Source of the DNA: Ginsengibacter hankyongi
GTDB lineage: Bacteria; Bacteroidota; Bacteroidia; Chitinophagales; Chitinophagaceae
Assembly: GCF_008710285.1 (NCBI RefSeq)
Contig: NZ_VYQF01000002.1
Coordinates: forward strand, 310,001 to 374,000
Direction: 5' to 3'
Length of the DNA: 64,000 nt
Shown: positions 3,690 to 63,288 of the stretch, piece after piece
How positions within the stretch are numbered: the stretch's first letter is position 1
Layout of the letters: every line of letters starts with the position of its first letter
Position numbers and translations under genes: made by a program
The notes under the pieces: generated by a model
The model's input: the letters and a program-made list of their open reading frames with translations, nothing else
Databases searched by the model: none
What the model was told of the DNA's origin: nothing

Positions 3690-3763
3690 TATCGGGGAGC
3701 AGACTTGAACTGCCGACCTTCGGGTTATGAATCCGATGCTCTAACCAGCTGAGCTACCCCGAC
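3690..3763 (-). tRNA. tRNA-Met (anticodon CAU)
   Basis: A full cloverleaf can be drawn. The acceptor is GTCGGGG/CCCCGAT with a G1.U72 wobble and discriminator A73. The D stem is GCTC/GAGC, the anticodon loop is TTCATAA and the T stem is GGCAG/CTGCT. The 3' CCA is not encoded. The anticodon arm, TCGGA...CCCGA, closes with an unpaired A31.C39. From C39 through AGGTCG it reads like a bacterial initiator tRNA, whereas the acceptor lacks the initiator C1xA72 mismatch. Elongator Met is the likeliest identity; Ile2 (lysidine-modified CAU) cannot be excluded. Confidence 0.9.
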
Positions 3764-40712: not shown

Positions 40713-40842
40713 AAAAAAAAATTAGTTTTGACTTCCTTTGAAAATTATTTTGAAAAAAACATTTATTAACTTTTAGAAACCACACCGGAAATTGCCTTAA
40801 GTTTTATGACTTTTTTATGACATTCCGGGGTTTACATAAAAA

Positions 40843-40850
40843 TAAATTTG
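40843..40850 (+). promoter_or_regulatory. -7 box (TAAATTTG) of the hemACDEFBL operon
   Basis: An exact TAnnTTTG ending 8 nt before the ATG at 40859. It lies downstream of the alternative ATG at 40817. Confidence 0.55.
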
Positions 40851-40858
40851 CACACTTC

Positions 40859-42067
40859 ATGATTATAGAGGAACCAGTACATCAGTTTTTAGATAATTTC
40901 TGCGTAGCAGGTATCAATTATCGTAAAAGTGATATAAGCATTCGTGGTAAATTTTCATTGCTGCCAGAGCATTCCATTTTATTATTAGAACAGGCCGTTC
41001 AAAAAAAGTTTCCCGCATGCATGGTACTTTCTACCTGCAACAGAACAGAAATATATGGTATCTGCGATCATCCACACCAGCTTATTGAAATGTTGTGCAT
41101 ACATACTCATGGCAACATGAAAGATTTTATTGAGCATGGCTATCAATACAAAGGTCTTACTACGGTTGAACATTTATTTAAGGTGGCTGCCGGTCTTGAT
41201 TCCCAAATAATAGGTGATTATGAAATTTTATCGCAGATAAAGCTTGCCGCAAGCCAGGCAAAAAAGAAAAATTGTTTAAACAGTTTTATGGAAAGAGTAA
41301 TTAATTATGCATTACAATCTTCCAAAGAAATAAAAACTACTACCAAATTAAGTTCTGGAACTGTATCAGTTTCTTTCGCCGCTATTGAAATTATTAAAGA
41401 AAGAATTGCTGATACGCATAATAAGAAAATTCTCTTAGTTGGTACGGGTAAATTCGGAAATCATATTGGGAAGAATCTTAAAAGTTATTTATCCGGATCT
41501 ATCCTTTTGTTTACCAATCGTACAGACCAAAAGGCATTTGATCTTGCAACAGAATGTGGCGGCAACTTTGTTCCTTACGCTAACCTGGCACCCGCAGCTG
41601 CCGATGCAGATGTAATTATCGTAAGTTCGGCATCTGAAAAATATACGATTCTTTCATCTTATTTTACAGGTTCAAAAGCAAGGCTGATACTCGATCTTTC
41701 CGTACCCCAAAATGTGGACCCTTCAGTTAAAGACATTGAAGGAATTACACTTTTAAACGTGGATGAGATATCTGTTATCCTCGACAAAACCATTTCACTT
41801 CGCCAGGCTGAAGTTCCTAAAGCAATGGAAATTATTAATAAAACAATGTTGGATTTGTGCACCTGGTACCGCAAACAAGCCATTAATCCATTATTGCGCA
41901 TGGTAAAAACTCAACTGTATGAGATAAGTGAGGTGCATCTTACCAACCAGGCTTTTGAGGAAAAAATTCACAAAGCAGTATCTTCGCTTGCAATACAATT
42001 GCACCAGCAAAATAATAAAGGTTGCCAATGTATTACTGCATTAAGCAGTTACCTTCACATGAATTGA
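40859..42067 (+). CDS. hemA: Glutamyl-tRNA reductase
   Basis: A 402-residue enzyme that reduces glutamyl-tRNA to glutamate-1-semialdehyde, the first committed step of C5 heme synthesis. The catalytic cysteine is in MVLSTCNRTEIYG. AAGLDSQIIGDYEILSQIK is the family motif before the NADPH domain, whose loop is LLVGTGKFGNHIG. The C-terminal dimer helix is a little short. An in-frame ATG at 40817 would add 14 residues but lies upstream of the -7 box, so 40859 is preferred. It is first of seven heme genes on this strand and overlaps hemC by 4 bp. Confidence 0.93.
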   Translation: MIIEEPVHQFLDNFCVAGINYRKSDISIRGKFSLLPEHSILLLEQAVQKKFPACMVLSTCNRTEIYGICDHPHQLIEMLCIHTHGNMKDFIEHGYQYKGLTTVEHLFKVAAGLDSQIIGDYEILSQIKLAASQAKKKNCLNSFMERVINYALQSSKEIKTTTKLSSGTVSVSFAAIEIIKERIADTHNKKILLVGTGKFGNHIGKNLKSYLSGSILLFTNRTDQKAFDLATECGGNFVPYANLAPAAADADVIIVSSASEKYTILSSYFTGSKARLILDLSVPQNVDPSVKDIEGITLLNVDEISVILDKTISLRQAEVPKAMEIINKTMLDLCTWYRKQAINPLLRMVKTQLYEISEVHLTNQAFEEKIHKAVSSLAIQLHQQNNKGCQCITALSSYLHMN

Positions 42068-42990
42068 AAAAGACTATTAAGATAGGAACACGTGAAAGTC
42101 AATTGGCTGTGTGGCAAGCTACACTTGTGCAAAATCTATTGCATGCAAATAATGTTGCTTCCGAATTAGTTTACATTAAAAGCGAAGGAGATATTGATAC
42201 CATTACACCATTGTATGAGTTAGGCGTGCAGGGTATTTTTACAAAATCGCTTGACGCCGCATTAATAAATGGTCGTATAGATATTGCCGTCCATTCTTTA
42301 AAAGATGTACCCACACAATTAGCCGTAGGAATTCAACAGGCCGCTGTTTTAAAAAGAGCTTCTTATAAAGACATCTTTGTTTGTAAAAATGATTCCTCTT
42401 TTTTAGAAAATAATAATGGTAGCGCAATTATTGCGACAAGCAGTACCCGCCGTAAGGCTCAATGGCTAAACAAATATCCCAATCATCGTTTTGAAAATTT
42501 GCGGGGTAATGTAAATACACGGTTAAGAAAAATAACAGAGCACAATTGGAATGGTGCCATCTTTGCCGCTGCAGGGCTTGAGCGAATTAATCTTCGCCCT
42601 TCAAATTCTATTGACCTTGATTGGATGTTACCTGCTCCGGCACAAGGCGCTATCGGCATTGTCTGTCGAACTGATGATCAATTTTCCTTTGAAGTAAGCA
42701 ATGTATTAAATGATGAACCCACGGCTTTATGTACAAAAATTGAACGAGATTTTTTAAGGGCATTATTGGGCGGATGTTCAACGCCAATAAGCGCTTTGGC
42801 GATAATGGAAAATGGTGCTGTTAATTTTAAAGGAAATATATGCAGTCCTGATGGAAAGCAAAAAATTGCAATTGAAAAAACTGCGTCTATACCAAACAGT
42901 GATGATTTAGGAAAACTTGCTGCAAACGAATTATTAAAAGATGGAGAAGCACAAAAAATCATTTACAGGTTAAGGAATGCTGAAAAATAA
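42064..42990 (+). CDS. hemC: Hydroxymethylbilane synthase (porphobilinogen deaminase)
   Basis: A 308-residue enzyme that polymerises four porphobilinogens into hydroxymethylbilane. KIGTRESQLAVWQA opens the fold. IDIAVHSLKDVP, STRRKAQWL and NLRGNVNTRLRKI are substrate-binding segments. The cysteine of LGGCSTPISALA holds the dipyrromethane cofactor. Starts at 42022 or 42028 would overlap hemA by about 40 bp. A TTG at 42064 gives the standard N-terminus (KKTIKIGTRES) and a TTGA overlap with the hemA stop, so it is chosen. Confidence 0.93.
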   Translation: MKKTIKIGTRESQLAVWQATLVQNLLHANNVASELVYIKSEGDIDTITPLYELGVQGIFTKSLDAALINGRIDIAVHSLKDVPTQLAVGIQQAAVLKRASYKDIFVCKNDSSFLENNNGSAIIATSSTRRKAQWLNKYPNHRFENLRGNVNTRLRKITEHNWNGAIFAAAGLERINLRPSNSIDLDWMLPAPAQGAIGIVCRTDDQFSFEVSNVLNDEPTALCTKIERDFLRALLGGCSTPISALAIMENGAVNFKGNICSPDGKQKIAIEKTASIPNSDDLGKLAANELLKDGEAQKIIYRLRNAEK

Positions 42991-43690
42991 AATCCAAATA
43001 TTAAGCACCAGGCCTGTTGGCGAAAAACTCATTAAGGAAGCAGCTAATAACGACATTATTATTGATGAAATATCTTTTATTAAAACAGAAGAGATAGTTG
43101 ATGCCGCAATTGAAAACAAAATCAGGAAATTATCCAGCGAAAACATAACAGTTGTTTTTACCAGTATGAATGCAGCGAATGCAGTTGCTAAGTTTATCAA
43201 AAATCAGCCTGGGTGGAAAATATTTTGCATTGGCAATACAACAAAAAAATTGGTGAAGGAATTTTTTGGAGAAGATAATATTAAAGGTTTTGCTGATAAT
43301 GCGGAACTGCTATCAAAAAAAATCATTGAGGATTCTTCAATAAAAAATATAACTTTTTTTTGTGGTGACAAGCGACGAGATGACTTACCGGGCAACCTCA
43401 TAAAAAATGGAATAGGTGTAGACGAAGTTATCGTTTATAAAACCATAGAAACACCAACAGCTTTGGCAAAACAATATGATGGAATTTTATTCTTTAGTCC
43501 CAGTGCAGTTCAAAGCTTTTTCTCAAAAAATTCTATTAGTGATAAAACAAAGGTCTTTGCGATTGGTTCTACTACTGCAGCCGCTGTAAAACATTTTACC
43601 CAACATTCTGTTATCATTGCTGAAACTTCCCGTAAGGAAAATTTAGTACAACTGGTAATTAATCATTTCAGCAAAAGCAATATCATTTAA
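42977..43690 (+). CDS. hemD: Uroporphyrinogen-III synthase
   Basis: A 237-residue, highly divergent HemD that closes hydroxymethylbilane with ring-D inversion. It is recognised by IQILSTRPVGEKLIKEAANN, VVFTSMNAANAVAKF (the T-S-x-N/xA motif), IFCIGNTTKKLV, GILFFSPSAVQSFF and FAIGSTTAAAVK, and by its place between hemC and hemE. It overlaps hemC by 14 bp and abuts hemE without a gap, so translation is coupled. It is shorter than the second HemD-like protein at 9.9 kb and is the better candidate for the pathway enzyme because of its operon position. Confidence 0.85.
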   Translation: MLKNKIQILSTRPVGEKLIKEAANNDIIIDEISFIKTEEIVDAAIENKIRKLSSENITVVFTSMNAANAVAKFIKNQPGWKIFCIGNTTKKLVKEFFGEDNIKGFADNAELLSKKIIEDSSIKNITFFCGDKRRDDLPGNLIKNGIGVDEVIVYKTIETPTALAKQYDGILFFSPSAVQSFFSKNSISDKTKVFAIGSTTAAAVKHFTQHSVIIAETSRKENLVQLVINHFSKSNII

Positions 43691-44722
43691 ATGCAACAAT
43701 TAAAAAACGATTTATTATTAAGGGCTTTAAGAAAAGAAAAAGTAGAACGCCCACCGGTTTGGATGATGCGGCAGGCCGGAAGGTATTTGCCGGATTATAT
43801 AAAACTGCGTGACAAATATGATTTTTTTACCCGTGTTCAAACCCCGGAACTGGCTACAGAAATAACAATTCAGCCGGTACAACAGATAGGAGTAGACGCA
43901 GCAATTATTTTTTCTGACATTCTTGTGATCCCGCAGGCAATGGGTGTAGAAGTTTTAATGGAAGAAGGTAAGGGTCCTTCATTACCTCATGTTATAAAAA
44001 CTCAAAAAGATATTGATGCATTACGTACAGCCAATATTGAAGAAAATTTAAGTTATGTAACAAAAGCATTAACTCTTACAAAACAGGAATTAAATGGTCG
44101 TGTTCCTTTAATAGGTTTTGCAGGAGCACCATGGACGATATTGTGTTACATGGTTGAAGGCAAAGGCAGTAAGACATGGGATAAAGCAAAACAATTTTGT
44201 TATACGCAACCCGATCTTGCTCATCAATTATTACAGAAAATTACAGATGTTTCTGTTACGTATTTAAAAGCACAGGCAAACGCAGGAGCGGATGCGTTAC
44301 AGGTTTTTGACAGCTGGAGCGGTTGCTTAAGCCCGGGCGATTTTAAACTTTTTGCTCAACCTTATTTAATACAAATTGCAGATGCGTTAAAAAATATAGC
44401 ACCTGTAATTTTATTTCCGAAAGGAAGCTGGTATGCATTAAATGAATTAAGTGAAAGCAGTGCTTCGGGACTTGGATTGGATTGGTGTATCTCACCTAAG
44501 ATCGCGAGGGAATTGACAGGCAATAAAATTACTTTACAGGGAAATTTTGATCCTGCTAAATTATTAATGCCTGTTCCTAAGATTAAAAAGGCAGTGAAAG
44601 AAATGATAGATGAATTTGGTGCTCAAAATTATATTGCCAATTTAGGGCATGGCATTACACCAAATGTTCCGGTTGAAAACGCAAAGGCTTTTGTTGATGC
44701 GGTGAAAGAATATAAAGTCTAG
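43691..44722 (+). CDS. hemE: Uroporphyrinogen decarboxylase
   Basis: A 343-residue cofactor-free enzyme that converts uroporphyrinogen III to coproporphyrinogen III. The N-terminal [16 protein letters not shown] carries the substrate-binding arginines. [14 protein letters not shown] contains the catalytic aspartate. [30 protein letters not shown] and [15 protein letters not shown] are family signatures. Its ATG follows the hemD stop directly. hemF begins 31 bp downstream. Confidence 0.97.
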
Positions 44723-44753
44723 ATGGTAAATACTTTCACTTTTAATTTTTAAA

Positions 44754-45671
44754 ATGAATATTAAAGAAGATTGGATATTATATATTGAAATCCTCCAGGA
44801 TCGCATTTGTTCCGCGTTAGAGAAATCTGATGGTAAAGAAAAATTCATTGAAGATAAGTGGCAGAGAAAAGAAGGCGGCGGCGGTAAAACAAGAGTTATT
44901 GCCAACGGAAATGTTTTTGAAAAAGGCGGAGTAAATACTTCCATTGTTTTTGGAGATGTTACGGACGCAATGCGGACACAATTGAAAATTAATGGATCAA
45001 AATGGTTCGCTTGCGGTTTAAGTTTAGTAATGCATCCTGTAAATCCTTTTGTTCCAACAGTTCATTGTAACTACCGCATGTTTGAGCTCTATAATGAAAA
45101 CGAAGAAGTAATTGATCGTTGGTTTGGCGGCGGCACAGACCTTACTCCATATTATTTATTTGAAGAAGATGCCAAACATTTTCATCTTACTTATAAAAAT
45201 GTATGCGATGAATTTGATCCATTATTTTATCCAACATTTAAAAAAGAATGTGATAATTATTTTGTAAACTTTCATAGAAATAATGAACGCAGGGGAATTG
45301 GTGGTATCTTTTATGATTACCAACGGCCGACAGAAAATAGAGATGTGAATTTTTGGATGAATTTTGGAAAGGCTTGCGGTAATGCATTTCTTCCTTCATA
45401 CATTCCGATAGTGGAAAAAAGAAAGAATACAAGTTATAATGCTGAACAAAAACATTGGCAGGAAATAAGGAGAGGCCGTTATATTGAGTTTAATTTGGTT
45501 CATGACCGCGGTACTCTATTTGGTTTAAAAACAAATGGAAAAACAGAAAGTATCTTGATGAGTTTGCCGCCGACAGCTCGATTTGAATATAATTATTATC
45601 CATTACCCGGTAGCGCGGAAGATCAATTGTTCCAGGTATGTTTGCACCCGGTTGATTGGGCAGAAGGTTAG
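44754..45671 (+). CDS. hemF: Coproporphyrinogen-III oxidase, oxygen-dependent
   Basis: A 305-residue enzyme that decarboxylates coproporphyrinogen III to protoporphyrinogen IX using O2. Motifs are KEGGGGKTRVIANGNVFEKG, HPVNPFVPTVHCNYRMFEL, FGGGTDLTPYYLFEEDAKHF (the HemF signature with catalytic Asp/His) and RRGRYIEFNLVHDRGTLFGL. Its dependence on oxygen indicates aerobic heme synthesis; the radical-SAM relative at 13.7 kb looks like the chaperone HemW, not a substitute. It is in the hem operon. Confidence 0.97.
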   Translation: MNIKEDWILYIEILQDRICSALEKSDGKEKFIEDKWQRKEGGGGKTRVIANGNVFEKGGVNTSIVFGDVTDAMRTQLKINGSKWFACGLSLVMHPVNPFVPTVHCNYRMFELYNENEEVIDRWFGGGTDLTPYYLFEEDAKHFHLTYKNVCDEFDPLFYPTFKKECDNYFVNFHRNNERRGIGGIFYDYQRPTENRDVNFWMNFGKACGNAFLPSYIPIVEKRKNTSYNAEQKHWQEIRRGRYIEFNLVHDRGTLFGLKTNGKTESILMSLPPTARFEYNYYPLPGSAEDQLFQVCLHPVDWAEG

Positions 45672-45701
45672 TTTTTAATCTTACATTTTTAATTATAAGA
45701 C

Positions 45702-46673
45702 ATGTATTTACAAAGAAGAAATAGGATACTGCGCCAGTCTCCTTCAATTAGAAGTATGGTTGCAGAAACTACGTTAACTCCAAATGATTTCATTGCTCCT
45801 TTATTTATTGATGAAGGAAAAAATGTTGCCTTTGAAATTCCTTCAATGCCCGGTTATTACCGGTATTCAATTGACGGCACCATAAAAGAAATTAAAGAAT
45901 TATGGAGTTTAGGAATTAAGAGTGTACTGCTTTTTATAAAAGCGCCTGATGAATTAAAAGATAATACGGGTAAAGAAGCGTGGAATGATAATGGCTTAAT
46001 GCAGCGAAGTATTAAAGCTATTAAAGACGCAGTTCCCGAAATGGTTGTTATGACAGATGTTGCGCTGGATCCTTATTCATCTTATGGACATGATGGAATA
46101 GTTGAAAATGGTGAAATTGTAAATGATCCTACAGTAGAAGCATTAGTAAAAATGAGCCTTAGTCATGCGAAGGCAGGTGCAGATTTTGTTGCGCCGAGCG
46201 ACATGATGGATGGGCGTATCGGCGCTATCCGCGAGGCATTGGAACAAAATAATTTTACCAGGACCGGGATTATGGCTTACAGTGCAAAATATGCTTCGTG
46301 CTTTTATGGACCATTCAGAGATGCGCTGGATTCAGCGCCTGGCTTTGGTGATAAAAAAACTTATCAGATGGATTACGCTAATCGCATAGAAGCAATAAAA
46401 GAAGCAATCATTGATGAAGAAGAAGGCGCAGATATTATTATGGTGAAACCGGCCATGGCTTATCTTGATATTATCCGCGAAGTGAAAGATAGCGTAACCC
46501 TTCCCGTTAGTGCATACCATGTAAGCGGCGAATATGCAATGATAAAGGCAGCGGCGAAAATGGGCTGGCTTAATGAAGATAAAGCAGTGATCGAATGTCT
46601 TACTTCCATTAAAAGAGCTGGTGCGGATTTGATTGCAACTTATTTTGCAAAAGATGCGGTTAAACTACTATAA
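45702..46673 (+). CDS. hemB: Delta-aminolevulinic acid dehydratase (porphobilinogen synthase)
   Basis: A 323-residue enzyme that condenses two 5-aminolevulinate molecules to porphobilinogen. FIAPLFIDEGKNVAFEIPSM starts the TIM barrel. VAPSDMMDGRIGAIREAL and YSAKYASCFYGPFRDA contain one catalytic lysine, and IIMVKPAMAYLDII the Schiff-base lysine. The active-site metal segment reads TDVALDPYSSYGHDG, the aspartate-rich magnesium type rather than the zinc-type triple cysteine. It acts early in the pathway although it is encoded late in the operon. Confidence 0.97.
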   Translation: MYLQRRNRILRQSPSIRSMVAETTLTPNDFIAPLFIDEGKNVAFEIPSMPGYYRYSIDGTIKEIKELWSLGIKSVLLFIKAPDELKDNTGKEAWNDNGLMQRSIKAIKDAVPEMVVMTDVALDPYSSYGHDGIVENGEIVNDPTVEALVKMSLSHAKAGADFVAPSDMMDGRIGAIREALEQNNFTRTGIMAYSAKYASCFYGPFRDALDSAPGFGDKKTYQMDYANRIEAIKEAIIDEEEGADIIMVKPAMAYLDIIREVKDSVTLPVSAYHVSGEYAMIKAAAKMGWLNEDKAVIECLTSIKRAGADLIATYFAKDAVKLL

Positions 46674-46738
46674 TAATATCTGGAAGATTATAACTTTATT
46701 TAAAAAGTTCTCATTTAACTTTTCATATCCCCACTATA

Positions 46739-48025
46739 ATGAGCTATACAAGTAATCGAAGTCAACAACTTTTTTTAAGAGCCCAACAATCAATTCCCGG
46801 TGGTGTAAATTCTCCGGTGCGTGCATTTAAGAGTGTTGGAGGTACTCCCGTTTTTATAAAAAAAGCTAAAGGCGCTTATTTATATGATGAGGATGAAAAC
46901 CGTTATATCGATTATATCAATTCATGGGGACCCATGATTCTTGGACACGCTTATGAGCCTGTGGTAAAAGCCATCCAGGAAAAGGCGATTCATTCAACGT
47001 CCTTTGGAGCGCCAACAGAATTAGAAGTTGAAATGGCCGAGCTTATAAAAAGCATGGTTCCAAATGTTGATTTAATAAGAATGGTAAGCAGTGGAACAGA
47101 AGCGTGTATGAGTGCCGTTAGGTTGGCGAGAGGTTATACAGGTAGAAATAAAATTATCAAATTCGAAGGTTGCTATCATGGACATGCCGATTGTTTTTTG
47201 GTTAAAGGAGGAAGCGGTATGGCAACATTAAATATTCAAACAGTTCCCGGCGTTACAGGCGGTGTAGCCAATGATACGCTAACTGCTCCTTACAATAATT
47301 TATCTGCGGTAGAAAAATTGATAGAAGAAAACAAAGAAGAGATCGCTGCAATTATTATAGAACCTATTGTTGGCAACATGGGCTGCATACTTCCGCAACC
47401 TGGCTTCCTTGAAGGATTAAGAAAGTTATGTGATGACGAAGGTATTATCTACATTTTTGATGAAGTAATGACAGGCTTTCGTTTGGCGCAAGGCGGAGCA
47501 CAAGAAAAATTGAACATCAATGCAGATCTTGTTACGTATGGAAAAGTAATTGGCGGAGGTTTACCTGTTGGTGCATTTGGCGGAAAAAAAGAAATTATGC
47601 AATACATTGCGCCGTTAGGAAATGTTTACCAGGCGGGCACTTTAAGTGGTAATCCAATTGCGATGGTAGCAGGGTTCACGATGCTTACCGAGTTAAAAAA
47701 TAATTCTTCAACTTATAAAGAATTGGATGAAAAAAGTTCATTTCTCGAAAAAGGTTTGCATGAAGTTTTAAACAATAAAAAGATACCCCATACTATAAAC
47801 CGCTTTGGAAGCATGATGAGTTTGCACTTTTGCCAGCATGATGTTATTGACTTTGATACAGCTGCAAAAGCAGATATTCCCCTATTTAATAAATTTTTTC
47901 ATCACATGCTTGAAAATGGAATTTATCTTCCTCCATCAGGTTATGAAAGTTGGTTTCTAAGCAATGCTCTAAGCTATGAAGATTTAGAAAGTACTATTGA
48001 AGCGGCGGATAAATTTTCGGTTTAA
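46739..48025 (+). CDS. hemL: Glutamate-1-semialdehyde 2,1-aminomutase
   Basis: A 428-residue PLP enzyme that converts glutamate-1-semialdehyde into 5-aminolevulinate, directly following Hem[21 protein letters not shown] and [20 protein letters not shown] are family motifs. [19 protein letters not shown] binds PLP phosphate, and the lysine of [18 protein letters not shown] forms the internal aldimine. It is last in the seven-gene operon, 65 bp after hemB. With hemA at the start, the operon covers Glu-tRNA to protoporphyrinogen IX. Confidence 0.97.
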
Positions 48026-48515: not shown

Positions 48516-51500
48516 ATGAAGAGTAAATACCAGGAATATATTCAACTGAATTTAACACAAATAGCAGGAGATGTGCTGGACGCTTGGGAAAAAGATAACA
48601 CTTTTGAAAGAAGCATCACTAATCGTGAAGGCAAGCCTACTTTCGTTTTTTATGAAGGTCCGCCAAGCGCCAACGGCATGCCCGGCATTCATCATGTAAT
48701 TTCAAGAACCTTAAAGGATTTGGTGTGCCGTTATAAGACCATGAGGGGTTTCCAGGTAAAACGTAAAGGCGGTTGGGATACCCACGGATTGCCAGTGGAA
48801 CTGGGAGTTGAAAAATTATTAGGAATTACAAAAGAAGACATTGGTAAAAAAATAACCGTTGAAGAATATAACGCCACCTGCCGCCGCGAAGTCTTAAAAT
48901 TTAAAGATAAATGGGATGAGTTAACTCAAAAAATGGGTTATTGGGTTGACCTCGATCACCCCTATATCACTTTTGAAAATAATTATATTGAATCGCTTTG
49001 GTGGTGCTTAAAAGAATTGTATAAAAAAGGATTTTTATATGAAAGCGTTAGCATCCAGCCTTACTCGCCTGCTGCAGGCACTGGCTTAAGTTCTCATGAA
49101 CTCAACCAGCCGGGAACTTACAAGGATGTGAAAGATACGAGTGTGGTCGCGATGTTTAAGGCAACTAAAAACGACAGATTAAAAATTGAAAATGCTGATG
49201 AAAATATTTTCTTTTTAGCATGGACAACAACTCCATGGACCTTGCCTTCCAATCTTGGCCTAACGGTCGGAACAAATATTGATTATGTTTTAATAAAAAC
49301 TTTCAATCCATATACACATCTTCCGGTAAACGTAATATTAGCTAAAGCACTTATCAATAAATATTTTAAAACAGAAAATGAAAATGGAGATTTTAGCTCT
49401 TACGATGAAACTGCTAAGCTTATTCCCTGGAAAATATTAAAAGAGTTTAAAGGCAAAGAACTTGAAGGGTTAACTTACGAACAACTACTACCCGGGGAAG
49501 CAAATACTTTAGAAAAAATCCGGGAAATAACTCCCGGGGCACAACCATTTAAGGTAGTAACCGGAGATTTTGTTACCACCGAAGATGGAACTGGTATCGT
49601 TCATACTGCGCCTGCGTTTGGGGCCGATGACTTTAAAGCCGGCAAGAAAAATAATCTCGGTATTTTAACGCTGGTAGATAAGGAAGGAAAATTTGTTGAC
49701 GGAGTTGGCGAGTTCAGTGGCCGCTTTGTAAAAAATTATAAAGACGACCCAAATTACACTGATGTAAACGTAGATATTTCAGTTAAGTTAAAAAAAGAAA
49801 ACCGTGCTTTTAAAGTCGAAAAATATGAGCATAATTATCCTCATTGCTGGAGAACTGATAAGCCAATAATTTATTATCCACTCGACGCATGGTTCATAAA
49901 AACCACGGCAGCAAAGGAAAGGATGATTGAATTAAATAATACCATTAACTGGAAACCTGCGTCTACGGGTACCGGTAGATTCGGTAATTGGCTGGAGAAT
50001 ATGGTGGATTGGAATTTAAGCCGCAGTCGTTTCTGGGGAACGCCATTACCTGTATGGAGAACTCGAGATGATACTAATCATTATTCAAGGTTAAATCAAC
50101 CCAAAATTGATAGTATAAAAATACCGTCATACGAAATCTGTATAGGATCTAAACAAGAATTTATAGAGTGCACTAGAGAAATTGAAAATAAATCTCAAAT
50201 ATTTAATGGCTTCTTTGTAAACATTCAAAAGATTAATAATGATTCCAATTTACTCAAATCCATTTTAGATAAATGGCAGGAAAATTATGATTTTGAGAAG
50301 ACAGACCCTTATACATACGTTTACACAAAAGAACTATATAATTTAATAGAATCCAATCAAAAGATTACTCTTGAAAATTTAGTTGATGCTAATCTGAAAT
50401 CTCACCATTTAAAAGAATTCTTGGCAAGGATCACAGAAAATGATTTAGAAAATATCGATTTACATAAACCTACTATTGACAATATTATTTTTAGTAATCA
50501 TGATGGAGAAATTTTAGTTAGAGTACCAGATCTCATTGACGTATGGTTCGACAGTGGCGCCATGCCTTATGCTCAATGGCATTTCCCCTTTGAAAACCAG
50601 GAAGAATTTAAGAAAAATTTTCCCGCAGATTTTATTGCCGAAGGTGTTGACCAAACAAGAGGGTGGTTTTATACGTTACATGTTTTAGCAGCTTTGTTAT
50701 TTGACAGTGTAGCTTACAAAACTGTTGTAAGTAATGGTTTGGTACTTGATAAGAATGGCGTTAAAATGAGTAAGCGACTCGGCAACATTGTTGATCCGTT
50801 TGAAACTCTTGAAATATTCGGGCCCGATGCTACAAGGTGGTATCTTATTACAAATGCTTCCCCATGGGACAGTTTAAAATTCGACCTGGAAGGTATTAAA
50901 GAAGTTCAGCGTAAGTTTTTCGGAACGTTATATAACACTTACCAGTTTTTTGCTTTGTACGCCAATGTAGATGGTTTTACTTTTAAAGAAAAATACATCC
51001 CGGTAAAAGAACGCCCCGAAATTGACCAATGGATAATATCATCGTTAAATTCTCTTATTGAATCAGTAACCAAAAACTTAGATGACTATGAACCTACACA
51101 AGCAGGAAGGGCAATTGAATATTTTCTTGATGAACATTTAAGTAACTGGTATGTTCGGTTATCCCGCAGAAGGTTCTGGAAGGGCGAGTACGAAAATGAT
51201 AAAATTTGTGCTTATCAAACTCTTTATGAATGCCTGCAGGCTTTAAGTATGCTTATCGCTCCTATTGCCCCGTTTTTTGCTGATTGGCTTTTTACAAATC
51301 TTAATACGGTAACTAAAAAGTTATCTCAGGAATCGGTGCATCATACCGATTTCCCTACAACTGATAGCGGTCTTATCGACATGGAACTGGAAGAACGCAT
51401 GCAATTAGCGCAGGATATTTCATCCCTCATTTTATCGTTGCGGAAAAAAGTGAATTTACCGGGCGGCCAAATCGGAATTAAAGTAAGGCAACCTCTTCAA

Positions 51501-52163
51501 AAAGTAATCATTCCTGCTATTGATGACTCATTTGCCCAAAAAATAAAAATGGTGGAAGATATCATCAAATCTGAAACTAATATTAAGGAAGTTGATATTC
51601 TGCAGGCAAATAATAATTTTATTAAGAAAAAGGCTAAAGCCAATTATAAAACGCTTGGCAAAAAATTAGGAGCTAAAATGAAATGGGCTGCCGAAAAAAT
51701 TCAGCAGCTTGGTGATGATGATATTACAAGAGTGCTGCAGGGAGATTTCATCTTAAATACTGATTATGAACAGAAAAAAGAGTCTCCTATCATAATAACA
51801 GCAGAAGATATTGAAGTTTCGACTAATGAGATTCCTGGATTTGAAGTTGCCGTGAAGGGCAATCTGACAGTTGCATTAGATATTATATTAACCGAAAACC
51901 TTAAAAATGAAGGTTTTGCTCGCGAATTCATTAACCGTATCCAAACTTTGCGTAAAGAAAAAAACTTTGATTTAACTGACAAAATTGTTGTAAATCTTGT
52001 TAATGATGAGGTTGCAATGCTTCCAATTAATGAATTTAATACATATATTTGCGCCGAAATTTTGGCAGATAAATTAGAATTTGTTCCAAAATTAGTTGAT
52101 GGCATCACTATTGATGTTAACAATCACTCTTTAACAGTAACAGTAACAAAAAAAGCAAAGTAA
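48516..52163 (+). CDS. ileS: Isoleucine--tRNA ligase with GIHH signature (IleRS2-like)
   Basis: A 1215-residue class I synthetase with an editing domain. The usual HIGH motif is replaced by GIHH (residues 57-60) in PPSANGMPGIHHVISRTLKD. KMSKR is intact at 750-754 (GVKMSKRLGNIVDP). Editing-domain text (TTPWTLPSNLGL, HTAPAFGADDF) and the catalytic-site WGTPLPVW and DVWFDSGAMPYAQW are normal. The segment between WGTPLPVWRT and DLIDVWFDS is about 165 residues, longer than I expect. Swapped GxHH motifs have been reported in mupirocin-hyperresistant IleRS2 enzymes, so natural mupirocin resistance is predicted. The DksA-like gene follows after 2 bp. Confidence 0.97.
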   Translation: MKSKYQEYIQLNLTQIAGDVLDAWEKDNTFERSITNREGKPTFVFYEGPPSANGMPGIHHVISRTLKDLVCRYKTMRGFQVKRKGGWDTHGLPVELGVEKLLGITKEDIGKKITVEEYNATCRREVLKFKDKWDELTQKMGYWVDLDHPYITFENNYIESLWWCLKELYKKGFLYESVSIQPYSPAAGTGLSSHELNQPGTYKDVKDTSVVAMFKATKNDRLKIENADENIFFLAWTTTPWTLPSNLGLTVGTNIDYVLIKTFNPYTHLPVNVILAKALINKYFKTENENGDFSSYDETAKLIPWKILKEFKGKELEGLTYEQLLPGEANTLEKIREITPGAQPFKVVTGDFVTTEDGTGIVHTAPAFGADDFKAGKKNNLGILTLVDKEGKFVDGVGEFSGRFVKNYKDDPNYTDVNVDISVKLKKENRAFKVEKYEHNYPHCWRTDKPIIYYPLDAWFIKTTAAKERMIELNNTINWKPASTGTGRFGNWLENMVDWNLSRSRFWGTPLPVWRTRDDTNHYSRLNQPKIDSIKIPSYEICIGSKQEFIECTREIENKSQIFNGFFVNIQKINNDSNLLKSILDKWQENYDFEKTDPYTYVYTKELYNLIESNQKITLENLVDANLKSHHLKEFLARITENDLENIDLHKPTIDNIIFSNHDGEILVRVPDLIDVWFDSGAMPYAQWHFPFENQEEFKKNFPADFIAEGVDQTRGWFYTLHVLAALLFDSVAYKTVVSNGLVLDKNGVKMSKRLGNIVDPFETLEIFGPDATRWYLITNASPWDSLKFDLEGIKEVQRKFFGTLYNTYQFFALYANVDGFTFKEKYIPVKERPEIDQWIISSLNSLIESVTKNLDDYEPTQAGRAIEYFLDEHLSNWYVRLSRRRFWKGEYENDKICAYQTLYECLQALSMLIAPIAPFFADWLFTNLNTVTKKLSQESVHHTDFPTTDSGLIDMELEERMQLAQDISSLILSLRKKVNLPGGQIGIKVRQPLQKVIIPAIDDSFAQKIKMVEDIIKSETNIKEVDILQANNNFIKKKAKANYKTLGKKLGAKMKWAAEKIQQLGDDDITRVLQGDFILNTDYEQKKESPIIITAEDIEVSTNEIPGFEVAVKGNLTVALDIILTENLKNEGFAREFINRIQTLRKEKNFDLTDKIVVNLVNDEVAMLPINEFNTYICAEILADKLEFVPKLVDGITIDVNNHSLTVTVTKKAK

Positions 52164-52165
52164 GT

Positions 52166-53143
52166 ATGGCTACTCAGAAAAAAAAGGGCACACAGGTTGT
52201 AAAAAAGGCAACCGCAAATAAACCTGCCGTTAAAAAGTCAGTATCTGCTGTTAAGAAGGTCATTACTTCTAAAAAATCGCCTGAGAAAAAACATTTGGCA
52301 AAGAAAACTGTTACAGCTAAAAAGCAGTCACCTAAACCAAAGACTGCCACTAAAAAAGTTGTTAAACCTATTAATAAATCTTCACTGGCTAAAAAACCTG
52401 CTAAGTCAGCTGTAAAAAAAGCAGTACCTAAAAAATTGCCTAACAAGAAAATCGTTGCTAAGAAAGCAGCAGCGCTGCCCAAAAAAGCGAAAGTTGCTGT
52501 GCCTTTAAAGACCCAAGTAAAAGCCAATAAAACAAAAACCGGCCTACAAAAGCCTGTTGAAAAAGCCGTTGCGAAAGCTCCTGTTGTTAATATAAATGAT
52601 CATAAAAAAGAGCTTAAAAAAGCTTTAAAGAATGCTGTGAAAAATAATGAATCTAAAAAACCGGAAAAGCCTTTTGTAATGCCTAAAACAAACACCGAAA
52701 AATCACGCAAGTATGAGCCACAATTTGTAAAATCAGTTCTTGACCACGCGCCCGAAGAAAATAATGGACCATCGATGCGTTATAGCGATGCTGAATTGAA
52801 TGAATTTAGAGAACTTATTTCGCGAAAGCTGGAAACAGCTAAGAAAGAATTGGGTTATTTACAAGGGCTTATAACCCGTAAAGATGAAATGGGTGGTGAT
52901 GATACGGACAACCGTTACATGACAATGGAAGATGGAAGCCTGAGTATGGAAAGGGAACAATTGAGCCAGATGGCAAGCCGCCAGATTACATTTATTGATC
53001 ATCTTGAAAAAGCCATGATGCGAATTGAAAATAAAACCTATGGCATTTGCCGGGTAACCGGAAAATTAATTGACAAAGCACGTTTAAGAGCAGTTCCTCA
53101 TGCTACTTTATCTATTGAGGCAAAAATGGGGATAGCAAAATAA
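52166..53143 (+). CDS. Histone H1-like tail fused to a TraR/DksA-type domain
   Basis: A 325-residue protein. Residues 1-165 are almost only Lys, Ala, Pro, Val and Thr in KKxxAKK/AVKK repeats, like the bacterial histone H1 C-terminal tail, and should bind nucleic acid. Residues about 205-325 resemble DksA/TraR: a coiled-coil (NEFRELISRKLETAKKELGY to QITFIDHLEKAMMRIE) and then YGICRVTGKLIDKARLRAVP. The usual four-cysteine zinc finger (CxxC...CxxC) is reduced to C295 only. It is probably a DNA- or RNA-polymerase-associated regulator. It is cotranscribed with ileS and followed by a terminator. Confidence 0.85.
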   Translation: MATQKKKGTQVVKKATANKPAVKKSVSAVKKVITSKKSPEKKHLAKKTVTAKKQSPKPKTATKKVVKPINKSSLAKKPAKSAVKKAVPKKLPNKKIVAKKAAALPKKAKVAVPLKTQVKANKTKTGLQKPVEKAVAKAPVVNINDHKKELKKALKNAVKNNESKKPEKPFVMPKTNTEKSRKYEPQFVKSVLDHAPEENNGPSMRYSDAELNEFRELISRKLETAKKELGYLQGLITRKDEMGGDDTDNRYMTMEDGSLSMEREQLSQMASRQITFIDHLEKAMMRIENKTYGICRVTGKLIDKARLRAVPHATLSIEAKMGIAK

Positions 53144-61104: not shown

Positions 61105-63288
61105 ATGGACTTTTTAACTTTTTCGATATCATTACAAAAATATAAAAGCAGGTTACTGCTTATAGCTGTCTATTTAATAATGACCTCTGCAATCGTACAC
61201 GCACAAGCACGGAATTATACTCTTGTATATTCAGATAATATAAAAGGTGGCACCGCAATATTTGGAAATACGTTGTTGCAGGTCATTAATAATGATACCA
61301 TCAATACAATAAAAATGAATGACAACAATGTCGATGGAAATAGTATATATGGTAATGATAATGAAAATATGAAAGATGTCGATATAGATGGAAGTACCGG
61401 CGGGTATGGAAGTGTTACTGTTAATTCTTCATCAGCAGATCTAATTCTTCCGGCGGGAAATAATAAAATTAAACTGGCCCGTTTATATTGGGGAGGGCGC
61501 ATCAGGAATTCAGATTTTGACTTAACAGCTTACGCAAATCAAACTATTAAACTAAGAAAAGGCACTTCAGTACCTTATTCAAATATAACCGCATTAGGAA
61601 TTGAGAAGATTACTATCGTATCCGGTTACTCGCAATACCAGGCTTATGCCGATATTACTGATTTCGTAAAAAATAGCGGTGCCGGAACTTATGAGGTGGG
61701 CAACGCTCCTCTTAGTACAGGAGCAATTGACAATGGCGGTAATAACGGCGGATGGTGCATTGTTGTTGTATATGAAAACGATGCAGTAAATTATAATAGT
61801 ATAAGAATATATGATGGGTTTCAGCAAGTATATAATAATGGCAACCCGCTTTCCAATTCAGTTACTTTAACCGGGCTAAATGTACCGTCCGGTCAACTTG
61901 CAGCAGGTGATGCTAAAATGGGTGTGCTTGCATGGGAAGGCGATGCGAATTTGGCTGGTGATTATTTGAAAATAAATGGTAACCTGTTTTCTAACACGAC
62001 AAATCCTGTAGATAATTTGTGGAACGGAACTATTACTGATAACGGACTGCATGTATCTTCAAAAAATCCAAATTATACTAACCAAATGGGATTGGACATT
62101 GACCAGTTTGATATGGGAACCGGCTATGGAATTTTCCCTAATGCCGGTTCAATAACGTTGGAATTTGGAACAACCTCTGATAAATATTTTCCCGGGCTTT
62201 TTTCGTTTATTATAAGAATGAAAGACCCAACGATCAATATCGATAATACGGTAAGTGATGCCAACAATAATCATTTTGCCAACCTGAATGAAGTACTAAC
62301 GTACACGCTTAAAGGAGAAAATAGCGGACCAGGAAATGCTAATTCAGTTGTAATTACGGACACGTTACCTGCTACTGTTACCTACGTTCCAAATTCATTG
62401 AAAATAATAAGTTCTCCCGGAGTTACAACCGGAATTCAAACAGATATTTCAGGAGACGATATTGCTGAATATATTGAAAATGGATCAATTAAAACTATAC
62501 AGTTTAGAATTGGAACAGCAGCTACAAGCAGTAATGGCGGTACTTTAGCGCCATATGAAACTTATGAAGTTCAGTTTAAAGTAACCGTTAACGACCCGGG
62601 AACCGGCAAACAGATTCCTCCGATAATGAACATTGCAAGAATAAAGGCGTTATCCGATGCCAATGTAAATTTTGTTGATGATGGTACTGCGATAATCAAC
62701 CCTGACAACGGGCCTGAGAATGGCCCATTACCCGTAACGATGGTTTCATTTACGGTCTCGCCTTTACAGGATAAAAAAGTAAAACTCGACTGGAAAACTT
62801 CAATGGAAATTAATTGCAGTAAATATAAAATTGTAAGAAGCTTCGACGGAAATATTTTTAACTATGTCGCCGAAGTTCCGGGAGCCGGAACAACTTCGTC
62901 CATTCACTCTTACTCCTTTATAGATGATGTATCTTCTGCCGGGTGCCCCATCATTTATTATAGAATAGATCAAATAGATAATGACTGGAAGAGTTCTTAT
63001 TCAAAAGTTTTGCCGGTAAAAATTACTGATGAAACCAGGCAGTTAATTATCTCGCCAAACCCTTTTACCAGTAGTATAAATATAAAAATAACATGGAATA
63101 AAAATGAAAATGTTACAGCCAAAATAATTAATCTACAAGGCAGCGAAGTAATTACGAAGGGCATTAAAATGAATAATGGGGTTAATTACATCGCTATTGA
63201 TGAATTATCTGATTTGCCCCCGGGAAATTATTTTATCCAATTTATTTCAGCAACAGAAAGGTTCACTAAAAAAATTACAAAGCAATAA
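61105..63288 (+). CDS. T9SS-secreted protein with DUF11 domain and type A sorting domain
   Basis: A 727-residue exported protein. A long signal peptide ends near IVHAQA (about residue 34). Residues about 35-370 form a beta-rich region with ARLYWGGRI and YADITDFVKNSGAGTYEVGN, seen in large adhesin-like proteins. About 385-500 is a DUF11 repeat (VLTYTLKGENSGPGNANSVV, ITDTLPATVTYVPNSLKI). The last 80 residues (IISPNPFTSSINIKI to PPGNYFIQFISATERFTKKI) are the Por-type C-terminal sorting domain for type IX secretion. It is probably surface-attached or released; adhesion is a guess. It stands alone. Confidence 0.9.
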   Translation: MDFLTFSISLQKYKSRLLLIAVYLIMTSAIVHAQARNYTLVYSDNIKGGTAIFGNTLLQVINNDTINTIKMNDNNVDGNSIYGNDNENMKDVDIDGSTGGYGSVTVNSSSADLILPAGNNKIKLARLYWGGRIRNSDFDLTAYANQTIKLRKGTSVPYSNITALGIEKITIVSGYSQYQAYADITDFVKNSGAGTYEVGNAPLSTGAIDNGGNNGGWCIVVVYENDAVNYNSIRIYDGFQQVYNNGNPLSNSVTLTGLNVPSGQLAAGDAKMGVLAWEGDANLAGDYLKINGNLFSNTTNPVDNLWNGTITDNGLHVSSKNPNYTNQMGLDIDQFDMGTGYGIFPNAGSITLEFGTTSDKYFPGLFSFIIRMKDPTINIDNTVSDANNNHFANLNEVLTYTLKGENSGPGNANSVVITDTLPATVTYVPNSLKIISSPGVTTGIQTDISGDDIAEYIENGSIKTIQFRIGTAATSSNGGTLAPYETYEVQFKVTVNDPGTGKQIPPIMNIARIKALSDANVNFVDDGTAIINPDNGPENGPLPVTMVSFTVSPLQDKKVKLDWKTSMEINCSKYKIVRSFDGNIFNYVAEVPGAGTTSSIHSYSFIDDVSSAGCPIIYYRIDQIDNDWKSSYSKVLPVKITDETRQLIISPNPFTSSINIKITWNKNENVTAKIINLQGSEVITKGIKMNNGVNYIAIDELSDLPPGNYFIQFISATERFTKKITKQ

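What the first reader, a model, noticed from the sequence alone, without database searches (positions are those of the whole stretch)
48516..52163. IleRS with GIHH in place of HIGH: predicted natural mupirocin hyper-resistance
Residues 57-60 of this isoleucyl-tRNA synthetase read GIHH exactly where class I enzymes have HIGH, with first and third positions exchanged; KMSKR is normal. From memory, work on a Priestia megaterium IleRS2 linked a GxHH signature to extreme mupirocin resistance. The swap can be read directly; resistance is an inference.
Basis: partly seen in the sequence, partly recalled or inferred. Interest (0 to 1): 0.7.

Follow-up and report, generated by a model that had tools for sequence, protein, structure and literature searches.

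The report
Ordinary Bacteroidota isoleucyl-tRNA synthetase, swapped motif
The gene is the bacterium's normal and only isoleucine-tRNA enzyme; its unusual swapped catalytic motif is real, is shared by all the relatives examined across its phylum, and matches a published enzyme class that is hyper-resistant to the antibiotic mupirocin.

Summary
The 1215-aa IleRS at 48516-52163 has GIHH at residues 57-60, ungapped in the column where P. megaterium IleRS2 has HVGH, with no HxGH elsewhere in the protein. The same genome's ValRS, LeuRS and MetRS keep canonical motifs. It is a type 2 IleRS and the only IleRS found in the genome.

The motif is not peculiar to this genome: all 228 relatives' loci typed, covering all 39 family codes drawn from the phylum, read GxHH. 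Brkic et al. 2023 (PMC10485003) described this G/AxHH class and tied it to mupirocin hyper-resistance (one natural member: Ki 6.6 mM).

Two additions. No HxHH halfway form matched in contigs held for 84,980 species. The window's enzyme also carries about 90 extra residues after WGTPLPVW, a rare and scattered feature absent from its nearest relatives, predicted to fold, without a fold match. That segment is the only unexplained feature.

The parts
48516..52163 (+). ileS: isoleucyl-tRNA synthetase, type 2 (IleRS2), 1215 aa, the only IleRS found in the genome
48684..48695 (+). GIHH (residues 57-60), swapped class I signature motif in place of HxGH
50763..50777 (+). KMSKR (residues 750-754), second class I signature motif
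50058..50537 (+). 160-aa connective-peptide segment between WGTPLPVW and DVWFDSG (54-84 aa in 139 of 157 sequences measured)
50205..50429 (+). extra part of that segment (residues about 564-638), predicted as a compact mainly helical unit
   Evidence: blocks of ten residues from 567 on have mean pLDDT 90-97
51555..52151 (+). C-terminal domain (Pfam DUF5915, residues 1014-1212), aligned with the C-terminal part of PmIleRS2

Best explanation
This is the housekeeping IleRS2 of a Chitinophagaceae (Bacteroidota) bacterium, with the known non-canonical G/AxHH form of the class I signature motif. [quoted passage not shown] The same bulky His59 clashes with mupirocin, so the enzyme should make Ile-tRNA normally and bind mupirocin only in the high micromolar to millimolar range. 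Shown here: type, column, single copy, conservation over the phylum sample. Inferred: taxon (from named relatives), catalysis through His59, and the Ki.
For: Ungapped alignment of GIHH to HVGH/GVHH of solved PmIleRS2. IleRS2 type: ileS equivalog 981.7 bits, DUF5915 C-terminus, HFPFE in place of the type 2 motif HYPFE, no Tyr-59 (Ser51) and no NKIL. Only one IleRS in the genome; the other PF00133 hits are ValRS-, LeuRS- and MetRS-like. 228 of 228 relatives' loci typed have GxHH. A match to the neighbouring dksA/traR-like gene lies in the fetched flank of 72 of 80 named loci; in all 22 loci printed it follows ileS within about 750 bases. Published: 86 natural G/AxHH among 163 IleRS2; DrIleRS2 ALHH Ki 6.6 mM against 8.1 uM after change to HVGH (PMC10485003).
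Against: No kinetic or MIC data for this enzyme or another Bacteroidota IleRS appeared in the rows shown by the paper searches (20, 20, 20 and 12 rows of 244, 25, 120 and 286 papers). The extra connective segment near the active site is not in the solved and measured enzymes compared here. The nearest solved relative is canonical in nature.
Confidence: 0.9

Rival explanations
1. The swap is an old neutral or structural feature of Bacteroidota IleRS2, fixed for reasons other than mupirocin; resistance is a by-product. (Compatible with the main explanation; it concerns only why the swap is there.)
For: No reversion among 228 loci typed over 39 sampled family codes is what an ancient fixed state would look like whatever first selected it.
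Against: Published motif exchanges show a direct and large effect on mupirocin Ki, and laboratory introduction of GVHH worsens kcat and KM by up to about tenfold each (PMC10485003).
Confidence: 0.45
2. An acquired mupirocin-resistance synthetase of MupA/MupB kind beside a sensitive housekeeping enzyme.
For: NCBIfam MupB and MupA models match at 757 and 755 bits, as may be expected of any IleRS2.
Against: Both are far below the 1900-bit cut-offs; only one IleRS in the genome; the same neighbour gene as in relatives.
Confidence: 0.01
3. Misalignment or sequence error: the true HIGH motif lies elsewhere, or GIHH is an assembly artefact.
For: None.
Against: No H.GH in the protein; GxHH in every relative typed.
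Confidence: 0.005

Closest known systems
G/AxHH IleRS2 (Deinococcus radiodurans ALHH, Streptomyces griseus; Brkic et al. 2023, PMC10485003)
   Different: Ki not measured here; the window's enzyme has about 90 extra residues after WGTPLPVW; Bacteroidota are not named in that paper's main text
Priestia megaterium IleRS2 (8c8u, 8c8v, 8c8w, 8c9d) and Thermus thermophilus IleRS2 (1ile)
   Same: Best sequence matches among solved structures
   Different: Both naturally HVGH; GVHH in P. megaterium is a laboratory mutant
MupA / MupB of staphylococci
   Same: Their models also match the window protein as an isoleucine--tRNA ligase
   Different: Acquired extra copies (recalled); the window protein is far below those models' cut-offs

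Membership tests
Bacterial IleRS2 (eukaryote-like IleRS) | Isoleucyl-tRNA synthetase by curated model | tested here: met
   TIGR00392 981.7 bits, cut-off 621.4
Bacterial IleRS2 (eukaryote-like IleRS) | Lacks the IleRS1 signatures Tyr-59 and NKIL; has HYPFE (PMC4861432) | tested here: met
   Ser51 and SRTL in those places, counted by position; HFPFE at 689, Phe for Tyr. The third IleRS1 signature, SSL, was not tested
Bacterial IleRS2 (eukaryote-like IleRS) | Type 2 C-terminal domain | tested here: met
   DUF5915 at 1014-1212; aligned to the C-terminal part of PmIleRS2
Bacterial IleRS2 (eukaryote-like IleRS) | Reduced mupirocin sensitivity of the enzyme | not testable with these tools
   needs kinetics
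G/AxHH (hyper-resistant) IleRS2 | Gly/Ala first and His third, in the HxGH column | tested here: met
   ungapped alignment; no HxGH elsewhere
G/AxHH (hyper-resistant) IleRS2 | Very high (up to millimolar) mupirocin Ki with near-normal catalysis | not testable with these tools
   needs purified enzyme
MupA/MupB acquired synthetases | Score above the curated cut-off; extra copy beside a housekeeping IleRS | tested here: not met
   757 and 755 bits against 1900; single IleRS

The most novel reading that the evidence does not exclude
The connective segment after WGTPLPVW is a rapidly changing optional module in Bacteroidota IleRS. A folded, mainly helical extra unit has been gained or lost at least about ten times on the tree, including between sister species (Taibaiella koreensis long, T. 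chishuiensis short), while the rest of the enzyme follows ordinary descent. It would act as a shield or modulator beside the active site or tRNA end, shaped by conflict with some unknown IleRS-directed agent.
Probability: 0.12. Interest if true: 0.6.

Novelty: new member of a known kind. Interest (0 to 1): 0.22.

Why it matters
If the inference holds, Bacteroidota as sampled here carry a mupirocin-hyper-resistant IleRS as their housekeeping enzyme, so mupirocin-resistance calls on ileS in this phylum would mean intrinsic rather than acquired resistance. The absence of an HxHH halfway form in the contigs held for 84,980 species leaves open how a four-nucleotide double swap of a catalytic motif was crossed, and that can be tested on purified enzyme. 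The scattered extra segment is a separate small puzzle.

Tried and rejected
Pm His582 position as a companion change: it is Leu in 213 of 226 GxHH loci with a readable KMSK motif (His 9, Met 2, Phe 2; 2 of 228 unread), but TtIleRS2 with HVGH also has Leu, so it is not diagnostic.

Loss of the CP1 cysteines as a companion of the long segment: it occurs in short and long forms alike; rejected.

Long segment as one conserved module: leave-one-lineage-out profiles beat all 20 shuffles for 8 of 19 long rows, but not for the window row (1.3 bits against a shuffled maximum of 3.1). Homology of the window's insert is therefore not shown. Pfam gave no match over a curated cut-off in the segment. Foldseek gave no match at E up to 0.001 in the PDB for either model, and none in BFVD for the second.

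Regulatory RNA near ileS: at Rfam gathering scores the window has only one match, a tRNA at 3690-3763.

Full report
Observation. ORF 48516-52163 (+) encodes 1215 aa. Residues 57-60 are GIHH (codons GGC ATT CAT CAT) and KMSKR starts at residue 750; no H.GH is present in the protein. The best solved matches are P. megaterium IleRS2 chains, where the stretch aligns without gaps to HVGH, or to GVHH in chain 8c8w, which ranks first. The finding is confirmed as written.

Type and copy number. The protein is an ileS equivalog (981.7 bits) with a DUF5915 C-terminal domain. It carries the type 2 marks given in PMC4861432 (passages): no Tyr-59, no NKIL, and HFPFE in place of HYPFE. A PF00133 search of the own genome finds this IleRS and three other synthetases, which I read as ValRS, LeuRS and MetRS from length and sequence. 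Their motifs are HMGH, HVGH and HIGH, so among these the swap is confined to IleRS. The enzyme is therefore the sole IleRS found, and housekeeping by inference.

Relatives. Named relatives are Chitinophagaceae and other Bacteroidota; the highest best-segment identities are 86% (L176) and 84% (L177) (the best 80 of 519 related stretches were kept). That the window's genome is Bacteroidota is inferred from these. The phylum-rank search found ileS over the cut-off in 197 of 198 genomes, the own one included. In the exception, G176, the only IleRS-like piece is a 74-aa frame at a contig end; it was not typed. I did not type all 198: I took 89, covering all 39 family codes, plus 60 of the 188 family-rank genomes that matched (195 searched, seven without a match at that threshold), plus the named loci. 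Of 206 loci held, 194 had the anchor GPPxxNG and 12 did not (five other stretches of the own genome, one 10-base stub, six others that lack the anchor region). After dropping the own genome and known duplicates and adding the 60, 228 of 228 read GxHH: GIHH 214, GVHH 12, GLHH 1, GMHH 1. At least four of these are probably one contig under two labels, judged by equal contig lengths (L135 and L226, L143 and L244, L195 and L227, L136 and L229), so distinct genomes are fewer. The anchor does not itself require GxHH.

Literature. Of Brkic et al. 2023 (PMC10485003) I read parts 1-4 of 7 and searched for terms. They found G/AxHH in 86 of 163 IleRS2 in their tree, with at least two origins and a reversion in Deinococcus-Thermus. 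They measured DrIleRS2 (ALHH) at Ki 6.6 mM, falling to 8.1 uM as HVGH, and a rise from 1.08 to 460 uM for P. megaterium IleRS2 and from 0.20 to 35 uM for T. thermophilus IleRS2 when changed to GVHH. P. megaterium IleRS2 is naturally HVGH. Their structures indicate that in IleRS2 the helix tip is shifted, so the third His can serve the catalytic role; their modelling has it clash with mupirocin. S. griseus IleRS2, which they say has the same motif, has Ki 10 mM (PMC4861432, passages). Bacteroidota are not named in the main text of PMC10485003, though they may be in its figures and source data, which I did not see. The rows listed showed no title or abstract opening on mupirocin kinetics of a Bacteroidota IleRS; most matching papers were not listed. 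The 12 papers listed showed nothing on the connective segment.

A halfway form. HxGH to GxHH needs four nucleotide changes (genetic code). A scan of genome contigs (84,980 species, contigs under 3,000 bases not held) for the frame with HxHH gave no match. The same frame with GxHH matches all 229 sequences held, the window included, so the frame is sensitive for this group. It requires Pro before the motif and so does not test IleRS1; its sensitivity for canonical IleRS2 of other phyla was not measured. HXHH, HVHH and GXGH do not occur in the main text of PMC10485003.

The extra segment. Between WGTPLPVW and DVWFDSG the window has 160 aa; in 157 of 169 sequences that could be measured (the window among them) the median is 69 and the range 54-193. 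In yeast numbering this region follows the CP2-3 linker (PMC7955072, passages). Long forms (over 110 aa) are rare: 1 of 85 measurable among 89 unnamed phylum genomes. In the family sample 3 of 57 measurable (of 60) were long, and I had picked those three for their unbroken matches. Among the named loci 16 of 76 were long, but that search used a peptide pattern inside the insert and is biased. On a tree made without the segment (106 rows, quick method, with long-branch warnings) 18 long among 103 typed rows, the window included, need at least 11 changes, 10 of them forced by starred branches. Shuffled labels need 16.8 on average and never as few, so the label is also partly clustered: eight of the long rows sit in one Pedobacter-Mucilaginibacter group. 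Sister pairs differ in three cases with starred support: window and L176, L127 and L194, L135 and L148. The segment is predicted to fold (175-aa model from 21 sequences: mean pLDDT 83.8; in the earlier 281-aa model the mean was 65.2 with the insert the confident part), without a fold match. Shared ancestry of the inserts is supported for 8 of 19 long rows but not for the window's. I cannot separate repeated gain, repeated loss and recombination.

Verdict. A correctly seen but known and, in this phylum sample, ordinary motif. The predicted enzyme-level mupirocin hyper-resistance is well grounded in published work on the same motif, and unmeasured here.

Noticed in passing
50058-50537 (residues 515-674): Long connective-peptide segment, rare and scattered among Bacteroidota IleRS, absent from the closest relatives, predicted to fold, no fold match.
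   Followed up: yes
ileS residues 184-187 and 444-447 (49065-49076 and 49845-49856): The cysteine pairs CPxC and CWRC of PmIleRS2 (zinc ligands by recall) read SPAA and CWRT here; similar losses occur in most of the relatives aligned.
   Followed up: partly
52166-53143: dksA/traR-like protein with a Lys/Ala-rich N-terminal stretch (histone-like HC2 only weakly, below its cut-off) and apparently a single Cys in the zinc-finger part; a match to it lies in the fetched flank of ileS in 72 of 80 named loci.
   Followed up: partly
40817-48025: Haem synthesis cluster upstream of ileS: glutamyl-tRNA reductase, HemD, HemE, HemF by Pfam, a class III aminotransferase likely HemL, and an ORF that I take for hemB from recall.
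   Followed up: no
61105-63288: Protein with a C-terminal Por secretion (type IX) sorting domain, fitting Bacteroidota.
   Followed up: no
L205 and L173: Contigs labelled Streptomyces griseus (a MAG) and Beijerinckiaceae carry an ileS close to the window's (77% and 61% best-segment identity); L205 falls among Chitinophagaceae on the tree. Probably misbinned or mislabelled.
   Followed up: no
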